From: Planctomyces sp. SH-PL62
GTDB taxonomy: Bacteria; Planctomycetota; Planctomycetia; Planctomycetales; Planctomycetaceae
Length of the DNA: 45,258 nucleotides
Reading direction: 5' to 3'
Assembly: GCA_945905295.1 (NCBI GenBank)
Contig: CAMDPX010000032.1
Coordinates: forward strand, 1-45,258
Shown here: positions 3-41,895 of the stretch, piece after piece
Layout of the letters: every line of letters starts with the position of its first letter
How positions within the stretch are numbered: the stretch's first letter is position 1
The notes under the pieces: model-generated
Database searches by the model: none
What the model saw: only the letters and a program-made list of their open reading frames with translations
What the model was told of the DNA's origin: nothing
Translations under genes and position numbers: made by a program

Positions 3-2843
3 TCCGAGGCTCAGATTGCTGATCTGGTGGAGTGGGTCCGGCGCGGAGCGCCTGATCCGCGCGTGGCCACGGCTCGGCTGGGCGGCTTGACGGTTGAAGA
101 GGCTCGGCGGTGGTGGGCTTTTCAACCGTTGAAACAGGTCGAGCCGCCGACTGTCAAAGATTCTGCGTGGCCGAGCAACGACCTCGATCGCTTCATTCTG
201 GCTCAGCAGGAAGCGCGCGGCTTGAGTCACTTGGCGACGGCCGACAAGCGCACTCTCATCCGCCGAGCCACGTTCGATCTGACGGGGCTGCCGCCGACCT
301 CCGCCGAGATCGAGACCTTCTTGAAGGACGACTCTGCCGAGGCGTTCGCGAAGTTGGTGGATCGGCTGCTGGCGTCTTCCGCGTATGGAGAACGTTGGGG
401 GCGGCACTGGCTGGATGTCGCGCGGTATGCGGACACGGCGGGCGATGGTGCCGACTATCCGGTGCGCGAAGCGGGCAAGTATCGCAACTGGGTGATCAAC
501 TCCTTCAATGCCGATCAGCCTTACGACGAGTTCCTGCGCGAGCAGATCGCGGGTGACATTCTCGCGAAGTCCGGCCCGCCGGATCAGTACGCCAACCGAG
601 TCACCGCAACGGGATTTCTCGCGATCGGCAAGCGGTATGGCTACAAGCCGTCGCCTGATTATCAACATCTCGACTTCGCCGATGCGATTGATTCGGTCGG
701 GCGATCGGTGCTGGGATTGTCGCTCGGTTGTGCGCGATGCCATGACCACAAGTACGATCCGGTGACGGCGGCCGATTACTACGCGCTCTACGGAATCTTG
801 CAGAGTTCGACGTGGGCCTTCCCTGGCGGCGAGGAGCAAAAGCGGCCCGTGTACTTTCCGCCGCTCGTTCCGCCGGACGAGGCCAAGCGACTCGATCAAC
901 TCAAGGCGGCGGAACTCGCGCGCTTGGATGCCGAGATCGGACGGCTCAAGTCCGAACGAAGCACTCTCGATAGCAAGTCGTTCGCCGGGGGAGTGGATCT
1001 CGGCTTTGAAGGGCAGACACTCGGCAAGCCGCCCGCAGGAGTGTGGTTGTCGGCCGGACCGAACTCGGTCATCGCCGAAGCTCAAAGTCCGTTCGTCCAC
1101 ACGCACCCCGCCGGGACGCGCGGCGCGCGTCTGGGTTCGGGCCAGAAGACTGGCGGCATTCGATACGTCTTTGAGCACGGCCTGCGTGCCACGCCCGGCA
1201 AGCAGATGCACTTCACGATCGACTTCCGGACGGTCGCCCCGACCGACAAGCGTGGCGCGTACCGTTTCTATCTGGGGCGCGGCGTGATTGCTTCGTTGGC
1301 GGTCGAGTGCAGCGTCACCGCGACCGAGTTCGCGATTAGAGACGGTGCCAAGTGGGAGGTCGTTCGGCAACTCGAACCGGGTACATGGCACACGCTGCGA
1401 CTGACGCTCGATCCGGAGAAGAAAACATATTCCGGCATCATCGCATCGGCGAGCGGGGCGGCGTCAGCCCCCCGGTTGTCTCGTGAAATGAACAGCGACA
1501 ATGCCCATGAATCCACCAGGGGGCTGACGCCACCCCGCTCGCCTAGCCTCACTGCGTTTCAAGACAAGCAACTTGCGGCGAACTGGGACGGCATCCTCGA
1601 CACGTTCATCTGCGATGGGATCGGGCATGTGGAGGGTCCGGCTCCGGTGCGAGATCTCGACAACATCGGTTTGATGGAGACACCGTTCGGCGCGCCTGGC
1701 ACGGGGCCGGTGACTTCTCCGGTTCTTTCGGCAGACGCGAAGGAGAAGCTCGCCAAGGTTGAACTGGACCTCGCGGCGCTGACGAAATCGCGCGTGGCGG
1801 AAGCCGCTCGGATGCCCTACGAAGTCGCCTACGGCGTGAGCGAAGGGACGCCGGTCAACGTGCGGATTCAGCAGCGCGGCGAGCCCGACAAGCTCGGTGA
1901 CGAAGTGCCGCGGCGCTTCCTCGAAATCCTTGGCGGCGATGCGCTGCCGACGAACTCAACCGGCAGCGGGCGTCTGGAATTGGCGCAGTGGTTGACTCGA
2001 CCGACCAACCCGCTGACCGCTCGCGTGTTTGTGAATCGAGTCTGGCAATGGCACTTCGGGCAGGGACTGGTCCCCACGTCGAGCGATTTCGGGACGCGCG
2101 GCGAAGCGCCGTCTCATCCCGAACTGCTCGACTGGTTGACGTCGCAGTTCGTCGCCTCCGGCTGGAAGGTGAAGGCGCTGCATCGACTAATCATGCGATC
2201 GCGAACCTATCAGCTTGCCAGCGACGACCACGCCGAGAACCTCAAGTTGGACCCGGAGAACCGCTGGCTGTGGCGTGCCTCGCGCCGGTCGCTGGATGCC
2301 GAATCGATCCGCGATGCGATGCTGGCCGTGAGTGGCCGGTTGGATCGTTCGCCCGCGTCGCCGCATCCGTTTCCGCCGGTCGATACGTGGGGCTTCACGA
2401 TCCACGCGCCGTTCCATGCGGTCTATGACTCGAACCATCGCAGCATCTATCTGATGGTGCAGCGCAATCGGCGGCATCCGTTCCTCGCGCTGTTCGATGC
2501 GGCCGATCCGAATCAGAGCATCGCCGAACGGCAGCCGACGACGACACCGACTCAGTCGCTGTTCTTGATGAACTCCCCATTCGTGCATGAACAGTCGGCG
2601 GCCTTCGCTCAACGACTGCTGGCTGTCGAAGGTGATGCCGCCACGCGAGTCCGGTCGGCGTTTGAACTCGCCCACGGCCGAATTCCCTCGGAGTCCGATG
2701 TGACCGACGCCGTGACCTTCATCACCGCCTACCGCGACAAGTTGGCGACTCAGAACATTCCGCCGGATCAGCAATCTCTCGCCGCTTGGTCAGCGTTCGC
2801 GCGAGTCTTGTTGACCGGCAATGCGTTTTTGTACGTGGACTAA
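3..2843 (+). CDS. DUF1549/DUF1553 planctomycete cytochrome-like protein, 5' truncated
   Basis: The frame is open from the window edge; the first visible residues (SEAQIADLVEWVRRGAP) match the end of the N-terminal PSCyt1 cytochrome domain of the paralogue at 34509, so the true start lies outside the window. DUF1549 follows (about residues 60-280) with the family signatures TFDLTGLPPT, YGERWGRHWLDVARYAD and CARCHDHKYDP; its CxxCH at C243 could bind haem or metal. A LamG-like insert sits in the middle, and DUF1553 fills the C-terminal third (FVNRVWQWHFGQGLV, GEAPSHPELLDWL). The family is secreted and of unknown biochemistry; pairing with DUF1501 is standard. An inverted-repeat element (1448-1543) is translated inside the LamG-like part. 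The DUF1501 partner begins 183 bases downstream. Confidence 0.93.
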   Translation, partial: SEAQIADLVEWVRRGAPDPRVATARLGGLTVEEARRWWAFQPLKQVEPPTVKDSAWPSNDLDRFILAQQEARGLSHLATADKRTLIRRATFDLTGLPPTSAEIETFLKDDSAEAFAKLVDRLLASSAYGERWGRHWLDVARYADTAGDGADYPVREAGKYRNWVINSFNADQPYDEFLREQIAGDILAKSGPPDQYANRVTATGFLAIGKRYGYKPSPDYQHLDFADAIDSVGRSVLGLSLGCARCHDHKYDPVTAADYYALYGILQSSTWAFPGGEEQKRPVYFPPLVPPDEAKRLDQLKAAELARLDAEIGRLKSERSTLDSKSFAGGVDLGFEGQTLGKPPAGVWLSAGPNSVIAEAQSPFVHTHPAGTRGARLGSGQKTGGIRYVFEHGLRATPGKQMHFTIDFRTVAPTDKRGAYRFYLGRGVIASLAVECSVTATEFAIRDGAKWEVVRQLEPGTWHTLRLTLDPEKKTYSGIIASASGAASAPRLSREMNSDNAHESTRGLTPPRSPSLTAFQDKQLAANWDGILDTFICDGIGHVEGPAPVRDLDNIGLMETPFGAPGTGPVTSPVLSADAKEKLAKVELDLAALTKSRVAEAARMPYEVAYGVSEGTPVNVRIQQRGEPDKLGDEVPRRFLEILGGDALPTNSTGSGRLELAQWLTRPTNPLTARVFVNRVWQWHFGQGLVPTSSDFGTRGEAPSHPELLDWLTSQFVASGWKVKALHRLIMRSRTYQLASDDHAENLKLDPENRWLWRASRRSLDAESIRDAMLAVSGRLDRSPASPHPFPPVDTWGFTIHAPFHAVYDSNHRSIYLMVQRNRRHPFLALFDAADPNQSIAERQPTTTPTQSLFLMNSPFVHEQSAAFAQRLLAVEGDAATRVRSAFELAHGRIPSESDVTDAVTFITAYRDKLATQNIPPDQQSLAAWSAFARVLLTGNAFLYVD
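1448..1543. repeat. Inverted-repeat element, family A, inside a coding region
   Basis: Arms 1448-1476 and 1515-1543 are inverted copies (27 of 29 positions pair) around a 38-base loop. The arm core is gcgagcggggcggcgtcagc. It is read through in the frame of the DUF1549/DUF1553 gene without a stop. The same arms occur at 30810-30895 and 37215-37286. Confidence 0.9.
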
Positions 2844-2863
2844 CTGAATCGTTTTTTGGGACT

Positions 2864-2989
2864 CAGATTGATCTTTGCACTGGTCAAGACACGGTCTTCT
2901 CTGCGCTCTTCGCTTCTCTGCGGTGAAAGAAAACTCTGGACTCACCGCAGAGAAGCGAAGAGCGCAGAGAGGGCGTAAACATCAATCTG
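2864..2989. repeat. Intergenic nested inverted repeat
   Basis: A perfect 29-base inverted repeat (2898-2926 with 2942-2970, core ctgcgctcttcgcttctctg) with a 15-base loop is nested in an outer 9-base pair, cagattgat (2864-2872) with atcaatctg (2981-2989). It fills most of the gap between the DUF1549/DUF1553 gene and its DUF1501 partner. No T-run follows, so it does not look like a classical intrinsic terminator. Confidence 0.88.
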
Positions 2990-7911: not shown

Positions 7912-8059
7912 CAACGTAGCCATCATCGCTCCGCGTGATGAGCCAACGTAGCCATCATCGCTCCGCGTGATGAGCCGAATGCTTCACACGACCACAATCA
8001 CCGGAAGATGCCGCCGTGAAGCACTCGGCTCGTCACGCGGAGCGATGACGGCTACGTAA
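7912..8059. repeat. Tandem 32-base repeat plus inverted copy forming a long hairpin
   Basis: Two identical adjacent 32-base units (7912-7943 and 7944-7975, beginning caacgtagccatcatcgctc) are followed by an inverted copy. The second unit and its flank (7944-7987) pair with 8016-8059 at about 39 of 44 positions across a 28-base loop. The array lies just past the stop codon of the SNF2 gene and before the SWIM gene, where it could act as an mRNA-stabilising or attenuating hairpin. Confidence 0.88.
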
Positions 8060-8070: not shown

Positions 8071-10899
<2,829 letters not shown>

Positions 10900-10999
10900 C
10901 GTCGTGGCCACTCTCCAATCAGGAAGCAGATGTCGTTTCACAGGGACTGTGATCGTAGTGCCAAGGATCGCAATTGAACGGTCATAGAGCCCGAAAATC

Positions 11000-11079
11000 C
11001 CCACGGATGGCATCGCAATACCACGGATGAAAAACGGGAAGCCCTGTTTTATCCGTGGTATTGCGATGCCATCCGTGGG
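11000..11079. repeat. Perfect 29-base inverted repeat upstream of the SNF2 gene
   Basis: Arms 11000-11028 and 11051-11079 pair perfectly (core ggatggcatcgcaataccac) around a 22-base loop that is itself partly self-complementary. Each arm contains ccacggat twice. It sits in the 254-base gap between the SNF2 start and the preceding small gene, so it would lie in the 5' leader of the helicase transcript. Confidence 0.92.
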
Positions 11080-11153
11080 AATCATCGGAATGAAAACCCA
11101 AGCTTTGATCGGCAGGCGGCGAGCGATGGTTCTGGTGAACGACGATGTCAGAT

Positions 11154-14176: not shown

Positions 14177-17161
14177 TCACTCTTTGGCCAGCTCCACGAC
14201 TTCGGCCGGAGACAGCGTTCGCTCGAAGACCAGAGTGTGGCCGATGAGGCCGCGGTAGTAGGCGTCGTGGAAGTAAAAAATCTCCGCGCCGAGGATCAGC
14301 GACGGGACGATCCCCGAATCGGCGGGGAACTTCTTCGTCATCCCCTCGCTGACACGCTTGCCGTCTTGGAAGAGGCGGATGAGCCACTGGCCGGCGGAGG
14401 GCTCGGCCGTCATCGCGACGTGAGTCCAGCGGTCGGCTTCGATCTTCGTTGGTGACTCGATCACGTCGTTGACGTTGATCCGCGAGGCGAGCTGATACGG
14501 AGCCTTCTGGCCGTGCAGGCCGAGGATGAAGCGGCGTGCTCCGAAACCGATGACGTCACCCCTGGCTCCGTGTCCCCCTTTGCCCATCTCGGTGGCGGGT
14601 TTGATCCAGGCGGCGAGCGTCACTCCTTTCATTGGTGCTCCGCCGCCGTGATGACCGGTCAGCGCGAGCGGCAGCGTGTCCTTGTCGGCGTAGGCGGAAT
14701 GTCCGAGATAGAAGCGGCCGAGTCCGCTGTCGCGACGGTAGTCTTTTCGGTTCGTCAGGTTGTCAGCGAAGCGAATCGCCGGGCGACCGGAATCGACGAC
14801 CCAGTCGAGGTTCGCGAGGTCGAGATGTCCGAGCGGCATTGTGGGCCGACGCTCCGCGTCGGCTTCTCGACGCGGAGCGTCGAGCCACACACTCGCGTGG
14901 TTGAAAACGAACAGCCCCTTTCCTTCGAGCATCCGATAATCGGCGATCGCACCGACCGGCGCGGACCCGAAGCTCGGCGGTTGATCGTTTGGCTTGGAGG
15001 CAACATCAGGCGGCGGGGCTTCGCCGTCGGCGAGGCGTTTGAATTCGACATCGGTGACCAGCATCTCGCCGGTGCCGGAGTTGCCGAACGCGATCGACAG
15101 CGAACTGGCCTCTTCCGGCACATCGAACACGAAGCCGGTCTTCTTCCAATCGAACGAGCCGTTGCCGACGAAATGTTTCGCCGTCGCGAGCGGCTTGTTG
15201 GTCTTAGCTTGAACCGCTTCGAGTTCGATGCGTCCGCCGGGACCGTGGGCGTTGATTGACTTCACGAGAGCGGTGACGACGTAGCGGCCTTTGTCGAGGC
15301 CGGCGGCTTGAGGCGAGTCAGGCTGAAAGCCTGACCTACGGGCGGGCAAGTTCGCCTTGCCGAACGACGCGGGGCCGAGCTTCATCGCGAAGCCGCTTCC
15401 CGCGCCGCAGTTCTTTTCGAGTTCATACGCCGGCCGCGTGTTGTGAGCCGTCATGAACGGCGTCCGGCCGTAGATCCACGTTTCGCTCAGTGGGACGAAT
15501 TGGCGGAACGTCAGCTTCGGCCACTCGTCGGCGAAGAGGTAGTGATGCTCTGGGTCGAGCGTCGGCGAGTCATAAATCTTCGACTGCTTGAACAGCGACT
15601 CGGCCTCGGCCGACGGGACGCCGGTGTAACGGTACTCGACGCGGAGCTTCGTGCCGGGCACGGCGGTCTCCGGCTCGAAGCTGACCCCCGTGTCGTAGAA
15701 CGCCGCGCAGACCGCCGTGTTCAACTTGCGAGTCAGCAGTTTTGTGGCGTCCTTCGGATCGCGATGCCAATCGTGCTTGATGCGGTACTCGACGCCGGGG
15801 ACGACTGGGACTGTCTCGCCATGCCGACCGAACCAGACACGCTGGCCGCCGTACATTTCGAGATCGTTCTGCGGGCCGGGGTCGATCGGGTACACCGGCC
15901 GATGATACAGCTCGCCGCTCTTCCGCTTGGCGATCAAATACTGCCAGCGAAACGGATCGAGCGGCGTGTGATGCTCGAAGTCGAATCCGTACCGAAAATA
16001 AAACGGCTCTCCGGGGAGGACTTCCAGTTCGCTGTCGATGTCGTAGGCATACGTCCCCCGCTGCGAGTCGAACCCGACCGTCAGAGTGCTCTTCGTGACA
16101 AACCGATCCTTCACGTTGCGAGCCGACCAAGTCGCCTTGACGACGTCTCCGTGGGGCACGTTTTCAACGTGCCCGTCCTTTGGCTTCGACGCTTTCTTGG
16201 GTTCTGACGTTTTACTGTCGGGCACGTTGGAAACGTGCCCCACGCTGACGACCGGGTCAGTCCACTTGCTGGCCGCGTCGGGAAACGCACCTTGATTCTC
16301 CAGTCCCCAGTGCGAATCAAACGTGAGCTGCGGCTTGTAACCCGGCTTGAGCTTCGCGAAGCAACTCGGATCGCGCTCGTTGTGCAGTTGCAGAATCGGC
16401 TCATCCCCATCGAACACCCACTGGCGATCGCCAAGCCACCGCCGCACGGAAAACTTCGGCGAGTGCATTGCCGTCACCACAAGCGGCTCGCGCTTCGCCA
16501 GCGAAGTGGCCGTCACGCCATCGAAGGTCACTCGCGCAAGGCTGCTCGTCCCGATGCCGACTCGCGCACCGGTGAGCGGCGCGTCGATGTCCCCGAAGAA
16601 AATCTTCTCCTTTCCATCGACCTTCACGACCACCGCGTTGCCAAGCGTCACGACCGACAGCGCGATCGGCTGATTGAGCTTCACCTCGCACGGCACGACC
16701 CGCAGGTATCCGCCGTCCGGGAACTTCACGAGCGCCACGCACTGATACTTGTGCGACAACTGCACGCGGAATCCCGACTCTTGCCGCAACTCACGCCCTT
16801 CGATCTTCGAGACGGCTTCTCCGCCGCGCACAAGCACTCCCGCCTCGAACCCGCCGTCGCCAAACGTCGGATCAGGCCACGCACTCCAGCCTTCGCCAAA
16901 GAACCGTAACTGCTTCGCCGCTTCGCTGATCGTGACGTTCGCCGACACCTCGACCTGCGGCAACTCGCCCGGCGCGACCAAATAACTCCACTTGTCCGCC
17001 GACATCGCCACCTTGCCTTCAGCAACCGCGGCCCCTTTCCAATCACTGGGTTTAGCAGACCACTTCGAGAGGTCATCCGCCCAAACCATCGCTGATTCAG
17101 AACAGACCCCAAGCAGCACAGCAACTGTCAGCCATCGCAGGCCGATGGAAATGGTTCTCAT
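14177..17161 (-). CDS. Large secreted LamG-domain protein
   Basis: 994 residues from the ATG at 17161, with AGGGAG 8 bases upstream and a signal peptide (MRTISIGLRWLTVAVLLGVC... to about residue 28); the longer frame to 17281 has no such support. The N-terminal 230 residues look like a beta-sandwich (KVDGKEKIFFGDIDAPLTGA), the centre resembles a glycoside-binding or polysaccharide-lyase-like beta-rich protein (YRIKHDWHRDPKDATKLLTR), and the C-terminus is a LamG domain (VTLAAWIKPATEMGKGGHGA; WTHVAMTAEPSAGQWLIRLF). Function unknown, probably surface carbohydrate binding or degradation. Three repeat elements are translated inside it: family B (16150-16244), one at 14841-14890 and one at 15317-15335. 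Confidence 0.85.
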   Translation of the reverse strand: MRTISIGLRWLTVAVLLGVCSESAMVWADDLSKWSAKPSDWKGAAVAEGKVAMSADKWSYLVAPGELPQVEVSANVTISEAAKQLRFFGEGWSAWPDPTFGDGGFEAGVLVRGGEAVSKIEGRELRQESGFRVQLSHKYQCVALVKFPDGGYLRVVPCEVKLNQPIALSVVTLGNAVVVKVDGKEKIFFGDIDAPLTGARVGIGTSSLARVTFDGVTATSLAKREPLVVTAMHSPKFSVRRWLGDRQWVFDGDEPILQLHNERDPSCFAKLKPGYKPQLTFDSHWGLENQGAFPDAASKWTDPVVSVGHVSNVPDSKTSEPKKASKPKDGHVENVPHGDVVKATWSARNVKDRFVTKSTLTVGFDSQRGTYAYDIDSELEVLPGEPFYFRYGFDFEHHTPLDPFRWQYLIAKRKSGELYHRPVYPIDPGPQNDLEMYGGQRVWFGRHGETVPVVPGVEYRIKHDWHRDPKDATKLLTRKLNTAVCAAFYDTGVSFEPETAVPGTKLRVEYRYTGVPSAEAESLFKQSKIYDSPTLDPEHHYLFADEWPKLTFRQFVPLSETWIYGRTPFMTAHNTRPAYELEKNCGAGSGFAMKLGPASFGKANLPARRSGFQPDSPQAAGLDKGRYVVTALVKSINAHGPGGRIELEAVQAKTNKPLATAKHFVGNGSFDWKKTGFVFDVPEEASSLSIAFGNSGTGEMLVTDVEFKRLADGEAPPPDVASKPNDQPPSFGSAPVGAIADYRMLEGKGLFVFNHASVWLDAPRREADAERRPTMPLGHLDLANLDWVVDSGRPAIRFADNLTNRKDYRRDSGLGRFYLGHSAYADKDTLPLALTGHHGGGAPMKGVTLAAWIKPATEMGKGGHGARGDVIGFGARRFILGLHGQKAPYQLASRINVNDVIESPTKIEADRWTHVAMTAEPSAGQWLIRLFQDGKRVSEGMTKKFPADSGIVPSLILGAEIFYFHDAYYRGLIGHTLVFERTLSPAEVVELAKE
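14841..14890. repeat. Inverted-repeat element inside a LamG gene
   Basis: A perfect 15-base core stem, cgacgctccgcgtcg (14847-14861) with cgacgcggagcgtcg (14868-14882), flanked by imperfectly matching gtggg and ccacac ends. It is translated in the host gene as LDAPRREADAERRPT. Confidence 0.75.
15317..15335. repeat. Short palindromic repeat inside a LamG gene
   Basis: gtcaggct (15317-15324) and agcctgac (15328-15335) pair perfectly around gaa. With the flanking cctacg this resembles a dispersed planctomycete palindrome. It is translated as RRSGFQPDS. Confidence 0.6.
16150..16244. repeat. Inverted-repeat element, family B, inside a LamG gene
   Basis: Arms 16150-16175 and 16219-16244 pair at 25 of 26 positions (core ggggcacgttttcaacgtgc). 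Each arm is itself nearly palindromic. The host gene reads it as GHVSNVP at one end and GHVENVPHG at the other. Other copies are at 20413-20510 and 35180-35232. Confidence 0.93.
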
Positions 17162-17394
17162 CAATGAACTCCCTGAGCTCTTCTTGGAGGCGCGTTTACA
17201 AGAAGCAGCATCTGCCATCCAGCTTCGTGGATCAAGCAAGTCCAAAGCTCGCGTCGATCGATCACGTCCGAGCCTTGTCATTCGTGCGAACGCCAGCAGA
17301 TTATGTGCTCATGCGGAGCAGTGGATTCGCCCCGGTCGGGACGAATCGAAAACCGCTCGATCTAGATTGCACGTCATCTCAGAAAGGATCAGTC

Positions 17395-17998: not shown

Positions 17999-20900
17999 CT
18001 ACTTGGTGACTCGGACGAAGTGCGAGCGTCGTTGTCCTGATGCGAGGTCTCGCACGTGGATCTCCCATTGGCCGAAGGCGTCATTTGCGGCAATATCGAG
18101 CTTGAGTTCGAGCACTCCGTGAGCGGCTCCGTAGTAGCCGCTGAACTCAGCGAGCCGGCCGTCGCCGTCTCGGACTTCGACGTGCAGCGGGATGACCGCG
18201 TCAACCGGCTTGCCGGTCGCGTCGTTGATGGAGATGCGGCCGGTCCACTGCTTGCCGCGAGCGACCTCGGCTGCGCCGTCGATCGACACCGCGGCAATCG
18301 GTTGAGGCAGAGTCATCAGCACTCGACCGTCGCACGGACCTAATGTCGTCGGCACAACGGTCGCCGTAGCGGAAGTCGCCAGACTTCCGACCGAACGTCG
18401 TTGACCTTTCGCTGCTTCAGCGTCGGAATCGGAAGTCTGGCGACTTCCGCTACTTCGATTGGTCCCATCCACCTTGCGGAACTCAACCGCGCGGTGCTCG
18501 ACCAAATCGTAGATCGCACCGACATCGCCGTTGACGGTCACCTCCGCCGCTGTCGGCACTCCGAGTTCATGCACGCGGCCGTATTGGCCGACGTAGTCGC
18601 CGGGTTCGCGGGCGTCGTTGACCAGGAAGATGTAATCGGCGCAGCCGGATCGACGGCGATGCGGGACGACTTCGGGTGACGATGAATCGACCACGCGCTG
18701 ATACTTGCCGTCAAGTTGCTGCCGAATTTCTGCCGCGAGTTTCAGCAGCGCGGCTTTGTCGGCGGCGGCGTCCTTCGTGCGAGCGAGGATCGGCAGCGTG
18801 ATGTCGGCCTTGATCGCCGGGCAGAGGCGTGAGTCGCCGACGATCAGGCCGCCGCGCTTCTGGAACGCGAGCACTCGATCGACGACCGGGCGAGTCAGCA
18901 CTTCGCAGTCGGTCATCACGAGCACTTTGTACGCATCCAGCCCGTCGCGCAGGACGTGCTCTTCATAGATGACTTCCGGCTGCAACCGAGCGTGTTGCAT
19001 CGCGAAGTACGCATCCGCTTGCCAGCCGCCGGCGTAACCCCAGGTGGCTCGCGACGCGAACGCGAACGTCGTGAAGCTTTCGAGAAACGCGATGTCGCTC
19101 TTCACGGCGGGGATTTGTCGCAGCGTCGGGCCGAGCGGTTCGACGACGTCGTGAATCAGCCGCGTGAGTTCGTGTTGCAGTTGCGGGTGCGTGTACTTGT
19201 AGGCGTGCGAGCCGTCGGTCGGAACGAGCGAACTCCAGCCGTGATACATGATCCCCTCCACCGGCCGAGCGATCTTCGTCCAGAACGCCTCGCGCAGATG
19301 ATGCGGGTGAATCGAGATGAAGCTCGTGCTCGGATCCTGATCGGCCCACTTCGCCGGGAGTTCCCCTTCTCGCGGCGAGGACTCCGCCGGTGCCGTCGTC
19401 GAGCGATACCAGAAGAGCTGCGTCATCTTCATGACCCGCTTCGTAGGTTGGGACTCCGTCCCGACCGCATTTGCACGCAGGCCCTTTGGAGTCGCGGATT
19501 TGGTCGGGACAGAGTCCCAACCTACGCCCGCCATCGCGAACATTTCATCCACCGGCAGTGACATGCGCAGCGGATCGGGATCGGTGTAGGTCCACTGCGA
19601 GAGCACATCGACCTCACCGCCGCTCCCCCACAATGGTGGGCACCGGACGACAGGATCGGTGAAGGTCCACTGATCGGCACGCTTCGACGCCCGTTTGAAC
19701 CCGCGATGCACGGCCGAGTGCGCGTCGTTCCAGCCGTCCCCTTTGCTCCACCACCAGCGATAGAACGCCAACTGCGGATGATCGGGCGAGACCACTCGAT
19801 CGGCCGGGAAGTCCTTCAAGGTTGTGTAGCTCGGCGGGTATTTGCCCTTCACGAAATCGGGAATGTTCGCGTCCGGGCCGAACGCGCGCCGATACGCCGC
19901 CAGATCCCACTCGGTGAACGAGACCTCGCTGTCGTCGCGGACCTCTGAGTTCACCAGCACCCCCTCGAAGGCCGGATGATCGCCATACGATTTCGCGATC
20001 GACTCGCCGAGCCGATCGAACGCCGCCATCACCTTCGGCGCGTTCGGCGTGAGCGTGCGCCGCTTGAGCTTCTCGCCGTTGCGTCCCGTTTGCACGAACT
20101 CACCGAGGTAAGGCTCGAAGTACCCGGGCCAAGTGGCGGCCATGATCTTGAGATCGTTCGCCAGTGCGGTATCGAGCATCGCTCGCGCGGCGGGCAGTTG
20201 TTCGGGCTTCGTGATGAGCACCGGTTCCGTCGCATCCGCCGCACGCTGATGATCGACCTCGGTGCCAAGGCAATGCGTGAACCCAATCTGCTTGAGCCGC
20301 GGCAATTCAACGAGCACATCCTTCACCCCGCCGATCCCCCACATCACGACCGGCATCCGCTCCGGCAACGGGCGAGCCACAAGCGTGACGGGATAGGTTT
20401 CGACGACTCGCCCGTGGGGCACGTTTCCAACGTGCCCATCCTTCGGGCTGTCGGTTTTCGATTTCTTCGAGTCGGTGCTTTTGACGGGCACGTTGGAAAC
20501 GTGCCCCACGCCGGCACTCACCGTCACGGTGTAAGCATCCGGCCGCAGCGTCGTGTCGAACGCAAACTCGACATCGTGTGATTCGCCCCCTTCAAGCTTG
20601 TTGATCGTCGCGTCCTTCGACAGTGGCAAGACCGGTCGCCCGCCAACATTCACCTCCAGCACTGCGTTCGAGATCGGCTCGCGCCGCAAGTTCGTCACGC
20701 GGACGGTCCACTTCGGAGCCTCCTCGAATCGAACGAACGTTCTCCGAGGAAACATGGCCGCGACGCGCAGCCGACCGAACTCGCGCACGCCGTTCGTGAG
20801 TCGCACTTCATCCACGAAGCCCGGAAAGCCGGGGTAGTTGCTGCCGAGCCGGTCGCCGATCGACAGCGGCAGATCGCCCGCCGAGATCGCTCCGCGTCCC

Positions 20901-21570: not shown

Positions 21571-21774
21571 TCATTTGGCCGTCGGCCGTCGTAGCGGCGG
21601 TCGCCAGACTTCCGTCCTTGCTTCCTCCACCATCGGAACTCTGGCGAGTTCCGCTACGGGCTCTGCTTTCACGCGGAATGGCAACAGCTCCGGCTCCGCT
21701 CCGTGAACTGCAGGGCCAAGGATCGGGCACATCAACACGACGCAAACGATTGTGAGACGAATCAACGGTGTCAT
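21571..21774 (-). CDS. Short secreted protein whose C-terminus is repeat-derived
   Basis: 67 residues. A good signal peptide (LTIVCVVLMCPILGPAVHGA) is followed by only about 40 residues, and the last 25 are encoded by the family E inverted repeat. The start overlaps the stop of the 246-residue gene in ATGA. It may be the remaining N-terminus of a longer secreted protein cut short by the repeat, or a genuine small secreted peptide. Not a known family. Confidence 0.5.
   Translation of the reverse strand: MTPLIRLTIVCVVLMCPILGPAVHGAEPELLPFRVKAEPVAELARVPMVEEARTEVWRPPLRRPTAK
21591..21657. repeat. Inverted-repeat element, family E, diverged copy
   Basis: Arms 21591-21614 and 21634-21657 pair at 20 of 24 positions. 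They match the family E arms at 18366-18453. It encodes most of the C-terminal half of the 67-residue secreted frame. Confidence 0.8.
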
Positions 21775-27378: not shown

Positions 27379-27564
27379 CGGTGGGTTTCTTCACAGAAAC
27401 ATGGAGCGGGAAGAACGAGCGGGGATTCTATTCAATCATCCTTTGCCGCCAACAACGGCACTGATCGCGGGGCGATTCGATGGGGTCATCCAGACGGTGG
27501 CAATTTGGCAGCGAAGAGATCAGTCTGTGGATCAATGAAAGTCGGCGAAACTGAAAGGTCTCCG

Positions 27565-29061
27565 ATGCGAAACGTCTGCCGGATTCTTGTTCTTGCGTAT
27601 TCATGGCTGCTGGCCACGACGATGTTGGGCGCGGCGGAGCCTTTGAAGGTTGGTCTGGCCGAGGTGGATATCACGCCGCCGGTGGGGTTCCCAATTGCGG
27701 GCTACTATCACGAGCGGCTGGCGGACGGCACGACGGATCGGCTCAAGGCGAAGGCGATTGTGTTTCGTGATACGAACGCTTCGGCCGCGTTGGTTGTGTG
27801 CGATCTGATCGGGATTGCGACTGACTTGTCGCGCGAGGTGCGGAAGCGAGCTTCCGATAAGACCGGGATTCCGGTGTCGGACATCGTGATCTCGGCGACG
27901 CACTCGCATACCGCGCCTGATTACATGAAGGAACTCTGGTTGCGGCTCGGTAACGAGAAGCAAGACCCTCTGCGTGCGGCTTACATCGACAAGCTCATCA
28001 ATGGCGTGACGGAGGCGATCACGAAGGCTCATGCCGACGCGAAGCCTGCGGCGTTGCAATGCGGATCGGCGACACAGGAGACGCCGGTGTCGTTCAATCG
28101 CCGCTTCGTCATGCGCGATGGCAGCGTGAAGACTTGGCAGAACTTTGAGAATCTTGAAGTCGTCCGCTCGGCCGGGCCGATTGATCCGGAGATTGGACTG
28201 CTCGTCGTAGGTTGGGACTCCGTCCCGACTGGCGTGAAGAAAGCGGTCGGGACGGAGTCCCAACCTACGGCGGTGCTGAGCAACTTTGCGTTGCATCTCG
28301 ACACTGTGGGCGGGCTGAAGTGGAGCGCGGACTATCCGTACTTCATTGAGCAGACGCTGCGCAAGTCGGTTGGCTCGGATGTGATTTCGATCTTTGGTAC
28401 TGGATGCTGCGGTGACATCAATCATGCGAACCCGCGTAGTAAGGATCGCAACAAGGCCGACTTCATCGGCATTTCGATCGGTGAGTCGATTCAAAAGCGG
28501 CTCGGCCAACTGACGCGGCTGGAGCAGACTGAACTTGTCGTGAAGTCGCGTGTGGTCAACGTCCCGCTGCAAGACGCGACGAAGGAGGAAGTCGCCCGCT
28601 CGATTCAGATTCTCGACGCTGCCAATCGTAAAGAGAAAGTCGAGTTCCTCGACCACGTCACGGCGTACAAAAAACTGATGCTCGACCAACTGCGGCATCG
28701 CGAGCCGCACGCGAACACCTCCGAGCACATCACCTGGGGCCTCAGCCGTTCGCTGGCCGGCATCGGTGACACGCTCCCCGTCGATGTGACTGTCATGACG
28801 CTCGGTCGCGACGTCGCGATCGTCTGCCTGCCGGGCGAAGTCTTTGTCGAACTGGGCCTCGCGATCAAACAAGGCTCGCCGTTCCGCACGACGCTGGTCA
28901 TCGAACTCTCCAACAGCGTCGAGACCATCTACATCCCCAACCGCGCCGCCTACGCGGGGGGCAGCTACGAAGTCACGAACTCAGCGCTGCAACCCGGCGC
29001 GGGCGAGATGCTCGTCGAAGCGGCACTCGGTTTATTGCGCGAAGCGGCCGGCAATCGCTGA
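27565..29061 (+). CDS. Neutral/alkaline non-lysosomal ceramidase-like hydrolase
   Basis: 498 residues from the ATG at 27565, 8 bases after AAAGG; the frame upstream to 27247 is not supported. A signal peptide (ILVLAYSWLLATTMLGAA) precedes the ceramidase N-terminal-type domain: VGLAEVDITPPVGFPIAGYY, a His-rich ISATHSHTAPDY likely at the metal site, FGTGCCGDINHANPR and VCLPGEVFVELGL. The family hydrolyses ceramide-type or related substrates outside the cytoplasm; the planctomycete members are often of unknown substrate. A family C repeat (28206-28269) is translated inside as VGWDSVPT...GTESQPT. Confidence 0.9.
   Translation: MRNVCRILVLAYSWLLATTMLGAAEPLKVGLAEVDITPPVGFPIAGYYHERLADGTTDRLKAKAIVFRDTNASAALVVCDLIGIATDLSREVRKRASDKTGIPVSDIVISATHSHTAPDYMKELWLRLGNEKQDPLRAAYIDKLINGVTEAITKAHADAKPAALQCGSATQETPVSFNRRFVMRDGSVKTWQNFENLEVVRSAGPIDPEIGLLVVGWDSVPTGVKKAVGTESQPTAVLSNFALHLDTVGGLKWSADYPYFIEQTLRKSVGSDVISIFGTGCCGDINHANPRSKDRNKADFIGISIGESIQKRLGQLTRLEQTELVVKSRVVNVPLQDATKEEVARSIQILDAANRKEKVEFLDHVTAYKKLMLDQLRHREPHANTSEHITWGLSRSLAGIGDTLPVDVTVMTLGRDVAIVCLPGEVFVELGLAIKQGSPFRTTLVIELSNSVETIYIPNRAAYAGGSYEVTNSALQPGAGEMLVEAALGLLREAAGNR
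28206..28269. repeat. Inverted-repeat element, family C, inside the ceramidase-like gene
   Basis: Perfect 24-base arms (28206-28229 and 28246-28269, core taggttgggactccgtcccg) around a 16-base loop, read in frame without a stop. The same arms occur at 19442-19526 in the opposite gene orientation. Confidence 0.93.
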
Positions 29062-30789: not shown

Positions 30790-31946
30790 ACGTGAAAGAA
30801 CAGAGCACAGGCGAGCGGAGCGGCGTCAGTCCCCCGGTTGATGGAACCGCGAACTCGTTCGGAGCCACCGGGGGGCTGACGCCGCCCCGCTCGCCTGGAT
30901 CAAGCATCAAGCGCTGGTTCGCGGAACGCCTGCCGATCACCGGAGTGCAGTTGGAAGAGCTGACCAACGAGCCGGTGCCGGCTCATCTACGGCATTGGTG
31001 GTTTTGCCTGGGCGGGACGCCGGCGTACCTCTTCGTTGTGCAGATCGTGACCGGCATCCTGCTGGCGTTCTATTACCAGCCATCGCCGCAGACGGCCTAT
31101 CAGTCGATCGACACGATCACGAATCAAGTCGCCTTCGGCTGGTACATCCGCGGCATGCACAAGTGGGCCGCGACGCTGATGATCGCGGCGATCATTCTGC
31201 ATCAGATGCGGGTCTACTTCACCGGCGCGTATCGCCAGCCGCGCGAGATCAATTGGATGGTCGGCATGTGCCTGCTGCTCTGCACGCTGATCGTCGGCTT
31301 CACCGGCTACAGCCTGGTCTTCGAGCAGCTCAGTTTTTGGGGAGCGACCGTCGCCGCGAACATCTGCGACACGGTGCCGTATTTCGGTGTCTTCGCCAAG
31401 CGGATGCTGCTGGCGGGCGACTCGTACAACGACAACACATTGTCTCGGTTCTTCATCCTGCATGCGGCGGTGTTACCGGGGTTGATGATCCTGCTGATCG
31501 GCATTCACGTCGCGATCTTGCGGCTGCAAGGAGTCAGTGAACTCCGCTTCGAGAACGAACCGGCCGACGCTCCGAAGCATTTCGATTTCTTCCCCGACCA
31601 TTTTTATACCGAGCTGATCATCGGCCTGACCCTGATGATCCTCTTGAGCGTGCTGGCGACCGTGTTGCCCGTGACGCTCGGCCCGAAAGCCGATCCGCTG
31701 ACGACTCCCGAAGTCATCAAGCCGGAGTGGTGGTTCTACGTCTCATTCCGCTGGCTGAAGCTGTTCTCCGGCACGTTCGCCGTGCTGAGTTCCGGGTTCA
31801 TCGTCTTCGTGATGTTCGTCTGGCCGTTTATCGACGGCTGGATTCGCAAGCGCACGCGGTTCAGCGAAGCGAGCGTGTGGATCGGCATCGTCGGTGTGTT
31901 TTTGCTAGTCGGCCTCACCGTGTGGGAGGCGATCGTCGAGCACTGA
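30786..31946 (+). CDS. Cytochrome b (b6-type with subunit IV region)
   Basis: 386 residues. About eight membrane segments are visible, including FVVQIVTGILLAFYY, MIAAIILHQM, LLLCTLIVGFTGYSLV and WIGIVGVFLLVGLTVWEAI. Haem ligands are H125/H139 and H226/H241; 14 residues between the second pair is the b6-type spacing. The Qo motif is PEWW (about residue 320), replacing the usual PEWY. Residues about 9-38 are encoded by a family A repeat and precede the first conserved segment (WFAERLPITG), so the conserved protein may start later. With the Rieske protein it forms a quinol-oxidising complex; no separate cytochrome c1 or f gene is next to it. Confidence 0.95.
   Translation: MNVKEQSTGERSGVSPPVDGTANSFGATGGLTPPRSPGSSIKRWFAERLPITGVQLEELTNEPVPAHLRHWWFCLGGTPAYLFVVQIVTGILLAFYYQPSPQTAYQSIDTITNQVAFGWYIRGMHKWAATLMIAAIILHQMRVYFTGAYRQPREINWMVGMCLLLCTLIVGFTGYSLVFEQLSFWGATVAANICDTVPYFGVFAKRMLLAGDSYNDNTLSRFFILHAAVLPGLMILLIGIHVAILRLQGVSELRFENEPADAPKHFDFFPDHFYTELIIGLTLMILLSVLATVLPVTLGPKADPLTTPEVIKPEWWFYVSFRWLKLFSGTFAVLSSGFIVFVMFVWPFIDGWIRKRTRFSEASVWIGIVGVFLLVGLTVWEAIVEH
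30810..30895. repeat. Inverted-repeat element, family A, at the cytochrome b N-terminus
   Basis: Arms 30810-30838 and 30867-30895 pair at 27 of 29 positions around a 28-base loop. It is read as GERSGVSPPV and GGLTPPRSPG. The left arm is read in a different frame from the copy at 1448-1543, so the family is open in at least two frames. Confidence 0.93.
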
Positions 31947-34284: not shown

Positions 34285-34314
34285 ACCGGCGACGACTGGC
34301 CAATTTGTGAAATT

Positions 34315-34405
34315 GGGTGGCACGTCCTGACCATCGGGAAGGGCGTGGGAATCGCGATCAACTCTGAAAACCACGCCCTTCCCGATGGTCAGGGTCGTGC
34401 CACCC
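34315..34405. repeat. Intergenic long inverted repeat
   Basis: Arms 34315-34348 and 34371-34405 pair almost perfectly (one indel; core cctgaccatcgggaagggcg) around a 22-base loop. It lies in the 224-base gap between the octahaem gene and the next DUF1549/DUF1553 gene. No T-run follows. Confidence 0.9.
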
Positions 34406-34508
34406 ACCGCGCCCGCCGGATCGTTCGTCAGCATCCGGCTTGTCAGCCGAGGGAAATGTTTATGGAATGCCGCACTCGCATTCGTTCCCGCCAGCAAGGA
34501 AGACCGGT

Positions 34509-37181
<2,673 letters not shown>

Positions 37182-37214: not shown

Positions 37215-37286
37215 GGCGAGCGGGGCAGCGTCAGGCCCCCGGTCTCGCGAAGAAACCACCGGGGGGCTGACGCCGCCCCGCTCGCC
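37215..37286. repeat. Inverted-repeat element, family A, intergenic
   Basis: Arms 37215-37243 and 37258-37286 (29 bases, about 27 pair) around a 14-base loop. It separates the DUF1549/DUF1553 gene from its DUF1501 partner. It is the third family A copy in the window. Confidence 0.93.
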
Positions 37287-38805: not shown

Positions 38806-39405
38806 ATGGCCACGATTTCCTTTCATCTCACCGGCGAAGCGCTGTGGCGGCGCATGGAGCGAGCTGTGGAAAAAATTCAGGAACGCTTGGAGCGGACGGC
38901 ACGAACGCTGGAACAAGCCGGGATTCCTTACGCCATCATCGGCGGGAACGCGGTGCGCGCCTGGGTCGCTCAGGCCGATGAAGCCGCGGTGCGGACGACT
39001 CGCGACGTTGACATCCTGCTGCGGCGATCCGATTGGCCAGCGGCCAAAGCGGCAATGGAGGCGACTGGGTTCGTGCATCGCCATTCGGCTGGCATCGACA
39101 TGTTTCTCGACGGTCCCGACGCCAAAGCGCGCGATGCCGTGCATGTGCTGTTCGCCGGCGAGAAAGTTTTCCCGGACGACCTCGTGGCTGCTCCCGACGT
39201 GTCGGAATCGGAAAACATCCAGAACCATCGGACGCTGACGCTCGAAGCGCTCGTGCGAATGAAGTTGATTGCGTATCGGCGGAAAGACCAGATGCATTTG
39301 CTCGACATGATCGACGTCGAATTGGTGGATGAATCCTGGTGTCATCGTCTTCCGCCAATGCTCGCTGCTCGGCTAAAGGAATTGCTCGATACCCCCAACG
39401 GATAA
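38806..39405 (+). CDS. Nucleotidyltransferase, AbiEii-like
   Basis: 199 residues, with AAAGG 9 bases before the ATG. The minimal nucleotidyltransferase fold is visible: YAIIGGNAVRAWV followed by TTRDVDILLRR, the usual G-G...DxD arrangement with the metal-binding Asp pair, then LTLEALVRMKLIAYRRKDQM. The nearest families are AbiEii/type IV toxins and MNT proteins, which transfer a nucleotide to tRNA or protein. No antitoxin gene is adjacent: the preceding gap is 88 bases and the next gene is a cytochrome-like protein. It may be an orphan toxin or a housekeeping relative. Confidence 0.85.
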   Translation: MATISFHLTGEALWRRMERAVEKIQERLERTARTLEQAGIPYAIIGGNAVRAWVAQADEAAVRTTRDVDILLRRSDWPAAKAAMEATGFVHRHSAGIDMFLDGPDAKARDAVHVLFAGEKVFPDDLVAAPDVSESENIQNHRTLTLEALVRMKLIAYRRKDQMHLLDMIDVELVDESWCHRLPPMLAARLKELLDTPNG

Positions 39406-39506
39406 CTTGGCCGGTGCCTGACTCCTCGCCTGTTACTTCTGACCCGGCGGTGGTGTCACGGAGTGCCACCGCGACTTTGCGGCTTCGCCGCGTTGGAAAG
39501 CATCTC

Positions 39507-41834
39507 ATGACTCTTGGCACTCGCACGGTTGCGTGCAGTCTGGCGACGTTGATGGTGATCGTCACCAGCACGGTCGGTGATGAGACGAAGCCGAACAGCA
39601 GATCGGGATGCGCTGCGGCCGCCGATCGGTTATTTGTCGATGAAGTCTGGGCCAAGGTCGGCGCGCAGTCGTGCCTCAAGTGTCACAAGACCGGCGGCGA
39701 TGCCGAGGAGAGCAAGTTCGTCCTGCAAGATCCGCAGCGGAGCCAAGGGGCTGCTCAAACCGAGGCCCTGCGGCATAACCGCGAAGAGTTCGCGCGGATG
39801 GCTCGCGTGAAAGAGGGGGAGCAGTTTCGCATTCTCTTGAAAGCAACCGGCGGACTGAAACATGGCGGCGAGGAAGCTCTCAAGGCCGACTCGACCGGTT
39901 ATCGCATCCTGTCGGACTTCGTGCGCCGAGTGAACGCTCCGCAGATAGGCAAGCCTCCGCATGAGGCCGCGGCTGACGATAAGAATGCGCCCCCTTTCTT
40001 CGACGGCGTGGTGATGCTGGATGATCGCCGCTTGCTGCGGCGTGCCACGCTCTCGCTGGCCGGGCGGCTTCCAACCGATGCCGAGCTAGCCGCTGTCGCC
40101 AGTCAGGGACTCAAGGCACTCCCCGACCTTCTGAATGCGGTGATGAAGGAAGACGCTTTCCACGCGCGGCTGCGCGAGGGATTCAACGACATCTTCCTCA
40201 CGGTCGGCTACGACGACGGAGCCGAATCAGCCCTCTCCTACGACCACTTCAGCGAGACGCGGCATTGGACTCAGAAGCACGACCTCAACCACATCGAGGA
40301 TGAGAAGGCGAGACAGAAGGCACGCTACAAGCTGGCGGATGACTATCGCGCAGCTCTGCTGGGTGAGCCGATGAAGCTCATCGAACACATCGTGCGGAAC
40401 GACCGGCCGTTTACCGAGATCGTGACCGCCGACTACATCATGGTCACCCCTTACACGGCTCACGGGTACGGCATCTACGACGACCTGAAGGCAACGTTCA
40501 AGAACCCGGACGACCCGTTTGAATATGTTCCGGTGAAGCTGAAGGCGCTCGTCGGCCGCAATCGGATTGAAGATCAGGAATCAGTGACCGGCCTCTATCC
40601 GCACGCAGGATTGCTCAGTTCGTTCCATTATCTGCGCCGCTATCCGACAACGGAGACCAATCGGAATCGTCTGCGTGCCCGGATGTATTTTCTGCACTTC
40701 CTCGGCATCGATGCCTTGGAGTTAGCCGCGCGAGTCTCTGATGCCGCCGCCGTCTCGGCCAAGTACGAAATCCCAACGATGCAGGCGTCGGAGTGCGTCG
40801 TCTGTCACAAGACGATCGACCCGGTCGCCGGTTTGTTTCAAGACTACTACAAGTTCGAAGGCGTTTACGGACGGCGAAAAGACGGCTGGTACAAAGACAT
40901 GTTCGGCCCCGGCCTCGAAGGCGAGGACATGCCGTCCGAGGATCGGTGGCGTTCGCTGCAATGGTTAGGCGAGCGAACCGCACGCGACCCGCGCTTCGCC
41001 GTCGCGATGGTCGAGCATGTCTATTACCTCCTCACCGGCCGCAAAGTCCTGCTTGCTCCCAAAGACATTGACGATCCGCTGTTCAACGCCAAACGTCGGG
41101 CCTATGCGGAACAGCGTTGTCAGATCGAGGGGATCGCCGCTCGGTTCGCTCAGAGCGAGTTCAATCTGAAGCGCGTGTTTCAGGACTGGATCGTTTCGGA
41201 CTTCTATCGGGCCGACGGTCTGGCGACCGTCGCTACGAACTCGGCGCGACGGGCGGAACTGGACGACATCGGGTTGGTTCGGATGCTGGCTCCCGAACAG
41301 GTCGAACGAAAAGTGGGAGCGATCTTCGGCGAGCCTTGGGGCCGGCTGAACGATCAACTGGAGATGCTTTACGGCGGCATCGACTCCAAAGAAGTGACCG
41401 AACGCGCCGCCGATCCCAGTGGGGCGATGGGTGCGATTCAGCGGATGCTCGCGAACGATGTCGCCTGCAAGCAAACGATTCGCGACTTCATGCGCGAACC
41501 GGCCGAGCGGCGGCTGTTTCCCGGCATCGAACCGAGCGTTGTTCCCGGCGCATCGCCGGAAGGGGATCTCGCAATCCGCCGTGTCATCGTGCATCTCCAC
41601 GAACGAATTCTGGGACGACACGACGCCGCAGATTCGCCGGATGTCGAACGGACGTTTCAATTGTTCGCGGGAATCGTCAGCGATGCTCAGATGCAAAAGG
41701 GGATCGATCCGCGCGAGATCTACAACTGCCGGCGCGAGATGCCCAACGTTCCCGGCGACCCGCAATACACGATCCGCGCGTGGCGCGGCGTCGTGACTTA
41801 TTTGCTTCGACGGCCTGAGTTCCTTTATGAGTAG
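39507..41834 (+). CDS. DUF1588-type planctomycete cytochrome-like protein
   Basis: 775 residues from the ATG at 39507 (GGAAAG upstream), giving a signal peptide (VACSLATLMVIVTSTVG). The N-terminal haem-like CLKCH is at C56; the DUF1588 signature ASECVVCHKTIDPVAGLFQD carries a second CxxCH at C430. AGRLPTDAELAAVASQG recalls DUF1592/DUF1549. The domain set differs from the two DUF1549/DUF1553 proteins in this window, so it is another branch of the planctomycete cytochrome group. Its stop codon TAG lies inside a family D repeat (41831-41895). A DUF1501-like gene follows. Confidence 0.9.
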   Translation: MTLGTRTVACSLATLMVIVTSTVGDETKPNSRSGCAAAADRLFVDEVWAKVGAQSCLKCHKTGGDAEESKFVLQDPQRSQGAAQTEALRHNREEFARMARVKEGEQFRILLKATGGLKHGGEEALKADSTGYRILSDFVRRVNAPQIGKPPHEAAADDKNAPPFFDGVVMLDDRRLLRRATLSLAGRLPTDAELAAVASQGLKALPDLLNAVMKEDAFHARLREGFNDIFLTVGYDDGAESALSYDHFSETRHWTQKHDLNHIEDEKARQKARYKLADDYRAALLGEPMKLIEHIVRNDRPFTEIVTADYIMVTPYTAHGYGIYDDLKATFKNPDDPFEYVPVKLKALVGRNRIEDQESVTGLYPHAGLLSSFHYLRRYPTTETNRNRLRARMYFLHFLGIDALELAARVSDAAAVSAKYEIPTMQASECVVCHKTIDPVAGLFQDYYKFEGVYGRRKDGWYKDMFGPGLEGEDMPSEDRWRSLQWLGERTARDPRFAVAMVEHVYYLLTGRKVLLAPKDIDDPLFNAKRRAYAEQRCQIEGIAARFAQSEFNLKRVFQDWIVSDFYRADGLATVATNSARRAELDDIGLVRMLAPEQVERKVGAIFGEPWGRLNDQLEMLYGGIDSKEVTERAADPSGAMGAIQRMLANDVACKQTIRDFMREPAERRLFPGIEPSVVPGASPEGDLAIRRVIVHLHERILGRHDAADSPDVERTFQLFAGIVSDAQMQKGIDPREIYNCRREMPNVPGDPQYTIRAWRGVVTYLLRRPEFLYE

Positions 41835-41895
41835 CCACGCTCGCCAGAGCGTGGGCAAATCGGTGATCGCCCCACGTTCTGGCGAACGTGGCTAC
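41831..41895. repeat. Inverted-repeat element, family D, at a stop codon
   Basis: Arms 41831-41855 and 41871-41895 pair at 23 of 25 positions around a 15-base loop. The TAG stop of the upstream gene (41832-41834) is part of the left arm. The same family is inside the SNF2 gene (9399-9468). Confidence 0.93.

What the first reader, a model, noticed from the sequence alone, without database searches (positions are those of the whole stretch)
1448..41895. About twenty inverted-repeat elements in recurring families, about half of them translated inside genes
Elements of 19-148 bp with paired arms of up to 44 bases occur throughout the window. At least five families recur: A (1448, 30810, 37215), B (16150, 20413, 35180), C (19442, 28206), D (9399, 41831), E (18366, 21591). 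Arms are strongly conserved while loops differ in sequence and length (from about 5 to 48 bases), which points to copying of hairpin units or to selection on the stem. The arms are read without stops in the host frames. They resemble dispersed REP/RPE-type palindromes, but I know of no described planctomycete class with this set of families. A mobilising RAYT-like transposase is not visible here.
Basis: partly seen in the sequence, partly recalled or inferred. Interest (0 to 1): 0.78.

Follow-up and report, generated by a model that had tools for sequence, protein, structure and literature searches.

The report
Mobile DNA hairpins translated inside genes
This uncultured planctomycete is full of short mobile DNA hairpins (REPINs and kin, apparently spread by small transposases), and many sit in frame inside genes, where they should be read as extra protein loops at spots that related species leave empty or fill with different hairpins.

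Summary
The window holds 17 long inverted repeats and 21 REP-like hairpins, against 0-1 and 0-3 in ten simulations. Families B, C, D, E and 14841 are REPs (GTAG/GTGG foot plus hairpin) in inverted pairs, that is REPINs. The family C REP has 231 copies in this genome, 4-95 in each of 11 congeners and none in 28 genomes of other genera. Two RAYT-type transposase genes elsewhere in the genome are flanked by family C REPs, so a transposase exists.

About a fifth of sampled elements lie in frame inside genes. Congeners show empty alleles; 35 of 37 distinct in-gene length differences are multiples of three. Sites studied are loops.

Beyond the finding: congeners carry different palindrome families at the same codon sites. 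In six shared in-gene pairs the arms changed little (5 of 286 positions, against 394 of 3,599 in flanks).

The kind is known: Di Nocera 2013 reported planctomycete GTAG REPs and intragenic REPs. Scale, site reuse across families and slow arms look like additions. Expression is untested; A, B, D and E have no proven transposase.

The parts
1448..1543 (+). Family A element, in frame in the PSCyt2/PSD1 gene 27-2843
   Evidence: protein alignment to G001 shows a clean 30-residue gap
7946..8057 (.). Intergenic palindrome with GTAG-footed arms (imperfect hairpin); left arm partly repeated at 7914-7944
   Evidence: other palindromes at this place in G006 and, by eye, G007
9400..9467 (-). Family D REPIN in frame in the SNF2 helicase gene (real gene about 8071-10956)
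   Evidence: fills the loop after motif I relative to PDB 1z63
10991..11088 (-). Separate dispersed palindrome (no GTAG foot) upstream of the SNF2 gene
   Evidence: congener orthologues align from residue 72-73; 15 other own-genome places in a capped list
14841..14888 (-). GTGG REPIN in frame in gene 14177-17281
   Evidence: absent in G011 and G001, another palindrome in G005
15317..15339 (-). Single GTAG REP in gene 14177-17281
   Evidence: same length in G007, G005, G011 with six changes that keep a hairpin; absent in G001
16151..16243 (-). Family B REPIN in frame in gene 14177-17281
   Evidence: empty in G007, G011, G003, G001, G002; shared with G005 with coordinated arm changes
18366..18453 (-). 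Family E REPIN in frame in gene 17999-21559 (residues 1036-1065)
   Evidence: pLDDT below 50 at 1034-1063
19443..19525 (-). Family C REPIN in frame in gene 17999-21559 (residues 678-706)
   Evidence: pLDDT below 50 at 679-704
20414..20509 (-). Family B REPIN in frame in gene 17999-21559 (residues 350-383)
   Evidence: pLDDT below 50 at 353-382
21591..21657 (.). Family E REPIN (one arm degenerate), upstream of gene 17999-21559
28207..28268 (+). Family C REPIN in frame in the ceramidase-like gene 27247-29061
   Evidence: same element in G002 and G010; shorter by 36 nt in the best matches of G006, G008, G001, which at 75-79% DNA identity may not be orthologues
30808..30897 (+). Family A element at the 5' end of the cytochrome b gene, apparently before the real start
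   Evidence: 40 own-genome places scored out of 622 candidates; absent in five of six congeners mapped
34326..34393 (.). Intergenic palindrome of a high-identity repeat (about 34292-34407), no GTAG foot
   Evidence: 95-97% identical copies of about 110-116 nt in G010, G001, G007
35181..35231 (+). Family B REPIN in frame in the PSCyt/PSD1 gene 34440-37181
   Evidence: same element in G002 and G006; empty in G010, G007, G004, G005, G011 (and in three hits that are probably paralogues); no target duplication seen
37215..37286 (.). Family A element, intergenic
   Evidence: other palindromes at this place in six congeners
41831..41895 (+). Family D REPIN; its GTAG supplies the TAG stop of ORF 39339-41834

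Best explanation
These are REPINs (paired inverted REP hairpins) and kindred palindromes: non-autonomous mobile elements copied in trans by HuH tyrosine transposases (RAYT/TnpA-REP) encoded elsewhere in the genome. Shown here: many copies, restriction of family C to one genus among 40 genomes, empty alleles in relatives, and family C and a second palindrome family flanking Y1 transposase genes. Inferred from the known family: RAYT recognises the folded hairpin on single-stranded DNA and moves it. In genes, the insertions that are seen add a multiple of three bases without a stop and, where I could look, sit in loops. They should be translated as extra, probably disordered residues (12-30 net where a shorter allele without an element is known). 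If such sites are few per protein and insertion is frequent, different families will hit the same site in sister species, as observed. Once in place the arms change less than the surrounding gene or switch as a set, which I attribute to homogenisation by other copies or repeated transposase action; that last step is inferred.
For: GT[AG]G-footed hairpins in inverted pairs. Sample of 400 kb: 136 inverted repeats, 101 REPs. Family C REP: 231 copies here, 4-95 in 11 congeners, 0 in 28 other-genus genomes, backwards-pattern control 0. RAYT loci on C225 and C147 each carry five family C REPs within 1.5 kb, on both sides; the C225 protein has NHVH and YIARNP. The Y1 gene of L007 lies between two copies of the palindrome found in frame in four sampled genes. 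Empty alleles. Length differences (rows under 6 nt dropped): 35 of 37 distinct in-gene (site, difference) alleles are multiples of 3, against 15 of 33 outside genes; without one site that I later discarded, 34 of 35, and the remaining exception (1448) is in frame at protein level. All 20 elements with coding on both sides but no common open frame have the upstream stop between 43 nt before and 91 nt after the element start, and an ATG (17) or only TTG/GTG (3) within 40 nt behind the element, so they look like gene borders. Loop placement. Arms 5/286 changed, spacers 11/83, flanks 394/3,599 in six shared pairs.
Against: Of the window families only C is tied to a RAYT gene; A, B, D and E have no proven partner, and family A lacks the GTAG foot. 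The C225 and C147 matches are weak (26.4 and 25.9 bits, cut-off 23), and C147 reads YIADNA at the tyrosine motif. In-gene GT[AG]G elements share no spacer with any other element of the sample, which copying of a whole REPIN would lead one to expect. Spacer peptides are as hydrophilic in the two other forward frames (-1.30) as in the one used (-1.28), so hydropathy does not show translation; the significant difference from the five other frames together comes from the reverse strand. Low pLDDT at the inserts is partly expected because the alignment is nearly empty there, and six other short stretches are low too. The 35181 element occurs in G000, G002 and G006 although the gene tree joins G006 to the empty G004. 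All congener genomes are drafts, and there are no RNA or protein data.
Confidence: 0.85

Rival explanations
1. The in-gene elements are transcribed but not translated: the ribosome hops over them, as reported for palindromic elements of Magnusiomyces mitochondria (passage in PMC6649704).
For: The five in-gene elements tested fold extremely well as RNA (z -7.8 to -13.6).
Against: Bypassing needs no reading frame, yet 35 of 37 in-gene length differences are multiples of three and no clear frame-breaking in-gene element was seen in the sample.
Confidence: 0.04
2. They are ordinary fast-evolving linkers that look palindromic by chance or through local quasi-palindrome correction, not mobile DNA.
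For: The sites are length-variable, and some neighbouring alleles are non-palindromic or simple-repeat linkers (L033:6335). The coordinated changes at 16151 could arise by hairpin template correction.
Against: Near-identical arms recur across the genome (231 for family C; families A and B) and flank transposase genes; simulated sequence gives almost none.
Confidence: 0.03
3. The arms in genes change slowly because the hairpin is useful to the host gene (RNA pausing, polarity, folding), that is purifying selection and not homogenisation.
For: Arms change about six times less than flanks while spacers drift; folding is very stable.
Against: Relatives do without the element at the same site or carry unrelated families. 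At 15317 and 16151 the arms changed as a set with pairing kept. The host genes are unrelated.
Confidence: 0.2
4. Recurrent hits at one codon site reflect target preference of the transposases, or insertion into an older palindrome, not a filter by protein tolerance.
For: Seven distinct different-family events at own sites against three elsewhere; intergenic places recur too.
Against: The sites whose position in the protein I examined coincide with loops, and element-free relatives exist at many sites. I did not search for a shared target motif.
Confidence: 0.25

Closest known systems
REPINs and RAYT/TnpA-REP (REPtrons)
   Same: GTAG/GTGG foot plus short hairpin, inverted pairs, high copy, RAYT gene flanked by cognate REPs for family C
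   Different: Foot-to-foot length 48-96 nt in the window and in-gene spacers unshared, whereas P. fluorescens GI doublets keep a 71-bp distance (PMC3116915 passages); about a fifth in frame in genes; sites reused by different families
Intragenic GTAG/CGTC REPs, above all of O. terrae (Di Nocera 2013, PMC3733652)
   Same: GTAG REPs, also reported from Planctomycetes; [quoted passage not shown] GTAG supplying stop codons; one precedent of site reuse (different REPs at about the same site of recB in two Xanthomonas species)
   Different: That paper says REPs in the other genes of that category lie at different sites; here site reuse by other families is the common pattern among congeners, and arms change less than flanks. 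The passages read do not report empty-site or frame tests of the kind done here
Rickettsia palindromic elements (RPE)
   Same: Palindromes in frame in many protein genes (passages in PMC3733652 and PMC6649704)
   Different: RPE-4 and RPE-6 are CGTC-tagged and CGTC repeats are said to lack a dedicated transposase; Rickettsia elements are said to lose repeat identity over time, while here shared arms are conserved
Coding palindromes of Nematomorpha mitochondria
   Same: Long inverted repeats kept inside coding genes (passages)
   Different: Perfect repeats with arms up to 142 bp; the authors call them distinct from selfish insertion elements

Membership tests
REP/REPIN | GT[AG]G tetranucleotide at the foot of a short hairpin | tested here: met
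   Families B, C, D, E, 14841, 15317. Not seen for A, 10991, 34326 and 2898
REP/REPIN | High copy number, dispersed | tested here: met
REP/REPIN | Inverted doublets with GT[AG]G ends outward | tested here: met
REP/REPIN | Spacer of fixed distance, as in P. fluorescens REPINs | tested here: not met
   48-96 nt foot to foot; no in-gene GT[AG]G element shares its spacer in the sample
REP/REPIN | Extragenic location (definition in PMC12306157 passages) | tested here: not met
   34 of 147 non-edge elements called in frame in genes, 30 after my discards; random positions 48%. So depleted in genes but not absent
REP/REPIN | Cognate RAYT gene flanked by the REPs | tested here: met
   Family C on C225 and C147. 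Not found for A, B, D, E within 1.5 kb of the 13 Y1 genes
REP/REPIN | RAYT cleaves and moves the cognate REP | not testable with these tools
   needs biochemistry
RAYT (Y1_Tnp) | HuH motif and catalytic tyrosine | tested here: met
   C225 ORF of 271 aa: NHVH, YIARNP; C147 copy: NHVH but YIADNA
Rickettsia palindromic element | In-frame insertion in ORFs | tested here: met
Rickettsia palindromic element | RPE sequence families | not tested
   no RPE sequence was compared; RPE-4 and RPE-6 carry CGTC tags by the cited passage
MITE of a DDE transposon | Target-site duplication | tested here: not met
   35181, by eye on the empty alleles; other sites not examined base by base
Translational bypass element | No need to keep the reading frame | tested here: not met
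   35 of 37 distinct in-gene length differences are multiples of 3

The most novel reading that the evidence does not exclude
Protein genes across this planctomycete genus carry a standing population of transposase-substrate hairpins as loops. Loop identity turns over between species at fixed sites, and the arms evolve in concert with the genomic REP population, not with their host gene. In several hundred proteins per genome a loop sequence would then be dictated by what a RAYT recognises.
Probability: 0.4. Interest if true: 0.8.

Novelty: new variant of a known kind. Interest (0 to 1): 0.68.

Why it matters
REPs are defined as extragenic. Here roughly a fifth of the sampled palindromes lie in frame in genes, with sister species giving empty, filled and differently filled alleles of the same site. 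That is a natural insertion-tolerance map of proteins. It is also a test bed for whether in-gene REP arms are kept by selection, by gene conversion or by the transposase, which is hard to ask where REPs avoid genes.

Tried and rejected
Rejected as elements: 41213 (conserved codons, same length in relatives); window 18736, L033:16509 and L032:15067 (arms of 18-19 nt inside ordinary coding sequence; only the first was checked against relatives; the other two by eye); L033:4035 (ORF of 27 residues). These four are the difference between 34 and 30 in-gene elements. L033:4035 was still in the set; one search gives the count without it. Translational bypass was rejected on the frame data. Hydropathy of spacer peptides gave no frame-specific signal. 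Shared spacers: 31 similar pairs among 123 spacers, none with an in-gene GT[AG]G element; a family B search showed ten copies sharing about eight bases beside one arm. RAYT partners for A, B, D and E were sought within 1.5 kb of all 13 Y1 genes and not found. The first arm count (3/286) used a boundary one base off at 28207; one search mends it to 5/286, so 'frozen' is now 'slow'; I left the odds as they were. Rfam on the window at gathering scores: 0 matches. Window right end against plasmids: no match. Six literature searches listed no paper on planctomycete in-gene REPs or on general site reuse by REPINs beyond PMC3733652; the library holds open-licence papers only and supplements were not open to me.
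Full report
What is there. Most are not single hairpins but pairs of REPs: a GTAG or GTGG foot, a short stem and a 3-4 base loop, facing a second copy in inverted orientation. One search scores both arms for 9400, 14841, 16151, 18366, 19443, 20414, 35181 and 41831, and one arm for 21591 and 28207, whose other arm is plain by eye. This covers families B, C, D, E and 14841. Family A (GGCGAG foot), 10991, 34326 and 2898 are palindromes without that foot. Ten order-3 Markov simulations of the window gave 0-1 long repeats and 0-3 hairpins against 17 and 21 observed.

Genome context. The window is contig C32 of an 8.60 Mb, 476-contig draft genome. In a 400 kb sample (first 20 kb of the 20 largest contigs, so not random) I found 136 long inverted repeats and 101 REPs. 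Family A gave 40 own-genome places scored out of 622 candidates, the window's own included. The family C REP (up to one mismatch) counts 231 here, 4-95 in each of 11 congeners and 0 in 28 genomes of other genera; the pattern read backwards gives 0 everywhere.

Transposases. Thirteen Y1_Tnp matches exist in the genome. The genes on C225 and C147 have family C REPs on both sides; beside that on C390 lie four copies of another GTAG REP. The Y1 gene of L007 lies between two copies of the GGGGTCGGGAGTC palindrome, which is in frame in four sampled genes. The C225 protein keeps NHVH and YIARNP; the C147 copy reads YIADNA; in both, the nominal N-terminus reads a family C REP arm in frame, although the true start could lie downstream. 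No partner was found for A, B, D or E.

In genes. With a codon-usage classifier, 34 of 153 elements in sample plus window (6 of them at stretch ends) have coding flanks in one open frame. Discarding three chance repeats and one with a 27-residue ORF leaves 30 of 147 non-edge elements, against 48% of random positions by the same classifier. Scaled up from this 5% sample that is some 600 per genome; treat it as a rough figure. Twenty further elements have coding on both sides of one strand but no common open frame; their stops and start codons place them at gene borders.

Mobility. In one search the same sites in congeners are empty between conserved flanks: L030:16503 (eight congeners), 35181 (five: G010, G007, G004, G005, G011), L030:12308 (five), 16151 (five), L033:12112 (two), L044:19679 (two). 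At 35181 the insertion runs foot to foot without visible target duplication. Over the in-gene sites, 35 of 37 distinct length differences of 6 nt or more are multiples of three; outside genes 15 of 33. Without the discarded site L033:4035 it is 34 of 35 at 17 sites, and the exception, 1448, is a clean in-frame gap at protein level.

Where in the protein. Gene 17999-21559 has three elements. Twenty more distant homologues (21 of 24 loci could be used, one of them a congener) have 1-8, 5-6 and 1-5 residues at those places. AlphaFold2 (mean pLDDT 79.1) puts the inserts at 353-382, 679-704 and 1034-1063, below 50 and between strands or helices; the alignment is nearly empty there, which lowers confidence by itself, and six other short stretches are low too. 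In the SNF2 protein the insert fills the loop after motif I relative to PDB 1z63. In a fused ECH/3HCDH protein it sits just before the second domain (insert 361-387, domain from 389). Others lie inside Pfam domains: two kinase domains, PSD1 (L030:17606) and PSCyt2 (35181). So not all lie at domain borders.

Recurrent sites. Of 24 in-frame in-gene palindromes found in 69 relative loci (370,679 nt), 22 map to my own-genome stretches: 19 at a site where the own genome has an element, 3 where it has none; 2 do not map. One of the 19 (41831) is at a gene end. By eye on the sequences, 11 of the 19 are of a different family, seven distinct events once shared cases are merged. A rough binomial, assuming 70 kb of coding sequence and a 50-nt target per site, gives 1e-11 for seven of ten. 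Examples: the SNF2 site holds three families in four genomes; L030:12308 holds three families and an empty allele; L030:17606 holds one REPIN in G000 and G010, another in G002, G007, G006 and G009, and a family A element in G005.

Slow arms. In six shared element pairs at four sites the arms differ at 5 of 286 positions, the spacers at 11 of 83 and the flanks at 394 of 3,599 (Fisher arms against flanks 1e-8, but the pairs are not independent). I left the 16151 and 15317 pairs out of this sum because their arms changed as a set: at 16151 the G005 copy has 5 of 48 arm changes, four of them a paired C/G swap repeated in both hairpins, and at 15317 6 of 23 positions differ and rebuild another hairpin in three congeners (1 of 23 in G003). 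With them included the arms would not look slow, so the claim is 'slow or switched', not 'slow' alone. The cause is open: selection, gene conversion or transposase action. The 35181 element is in G000, G002 and G006 although the host-gene tree joins G006 to the empty G004, so loss, local recombination or a second hit must be assumed.

Known or new. Di Nocera 2013 (PMC3733652; passages and the section on genome distribution) already reports GTAG REPs in Planctomycetes, several REP families in R. baltica, intragenic REPs in several species, GTAG giving stop codons, and one case of different REPs at about the same site of a gene (recB of two Xanthomonas). TnpA-REP biochemistry is from PMC8266576 (outline and part of the discussion), REPIN anatomy from PMC3116915 (passages), HuH subclasses from PMC6006769 (passages), coding palindromes and the Rickettsia comparison from PMC6649704 (passages). 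So the kind is known. The additions are the frame and empty-site tests in a planctomycete genus, the common reuse of sites by different families, and arms that stay or switch as a set.

Noticed in passing
window 34292-34407: A palindromic repeat of about 115 bp with 95-97% identical copies in G010, G001 and G007, closer than the neighbouring genes, as if recently active or exchanged.
   Followed up: partly
window 10991-11088: Dispersed palindrome without GTAG foot upstream of the SNF2 gene, 15 further own-genome places in a capped list; it inflates the nominal ORF.
   Followed up: partly
window 2898-2970: Perfect 29-bp inverted repeat (TCTCTGCGCTCTTCGC...), not REP-like, intergenic.
   Followed up: no
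window 45103-45253: About 150 bp at the window end match stretches of G001, three of them at contig starts, at 88-93%, suggesting the edge of a repeated element where assemblies break; no plasmid match.
   Followed up: partly
L151, L152 (RAYT genes of C225 and C147): The nominal N-terminus of both RAYT ORFs reads a family C REP arm in frame (VGTESQPT).
   Followed up: partly
L033:6335-6422 and orthologues: One coding site holds GGGGCGAGGGGCGAG-type palindromes here, GTTCCGAGTTCCGAG palindromes or GATTTGAGATTTG repeats in congeners, with length differences that are multiples of three.
   Followed up: partly
window 35181-35231: Element in G000, G002 and G006, with arms identical, although G006 groups with empty G004 in the host-gene tree.
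   Followed up: partly
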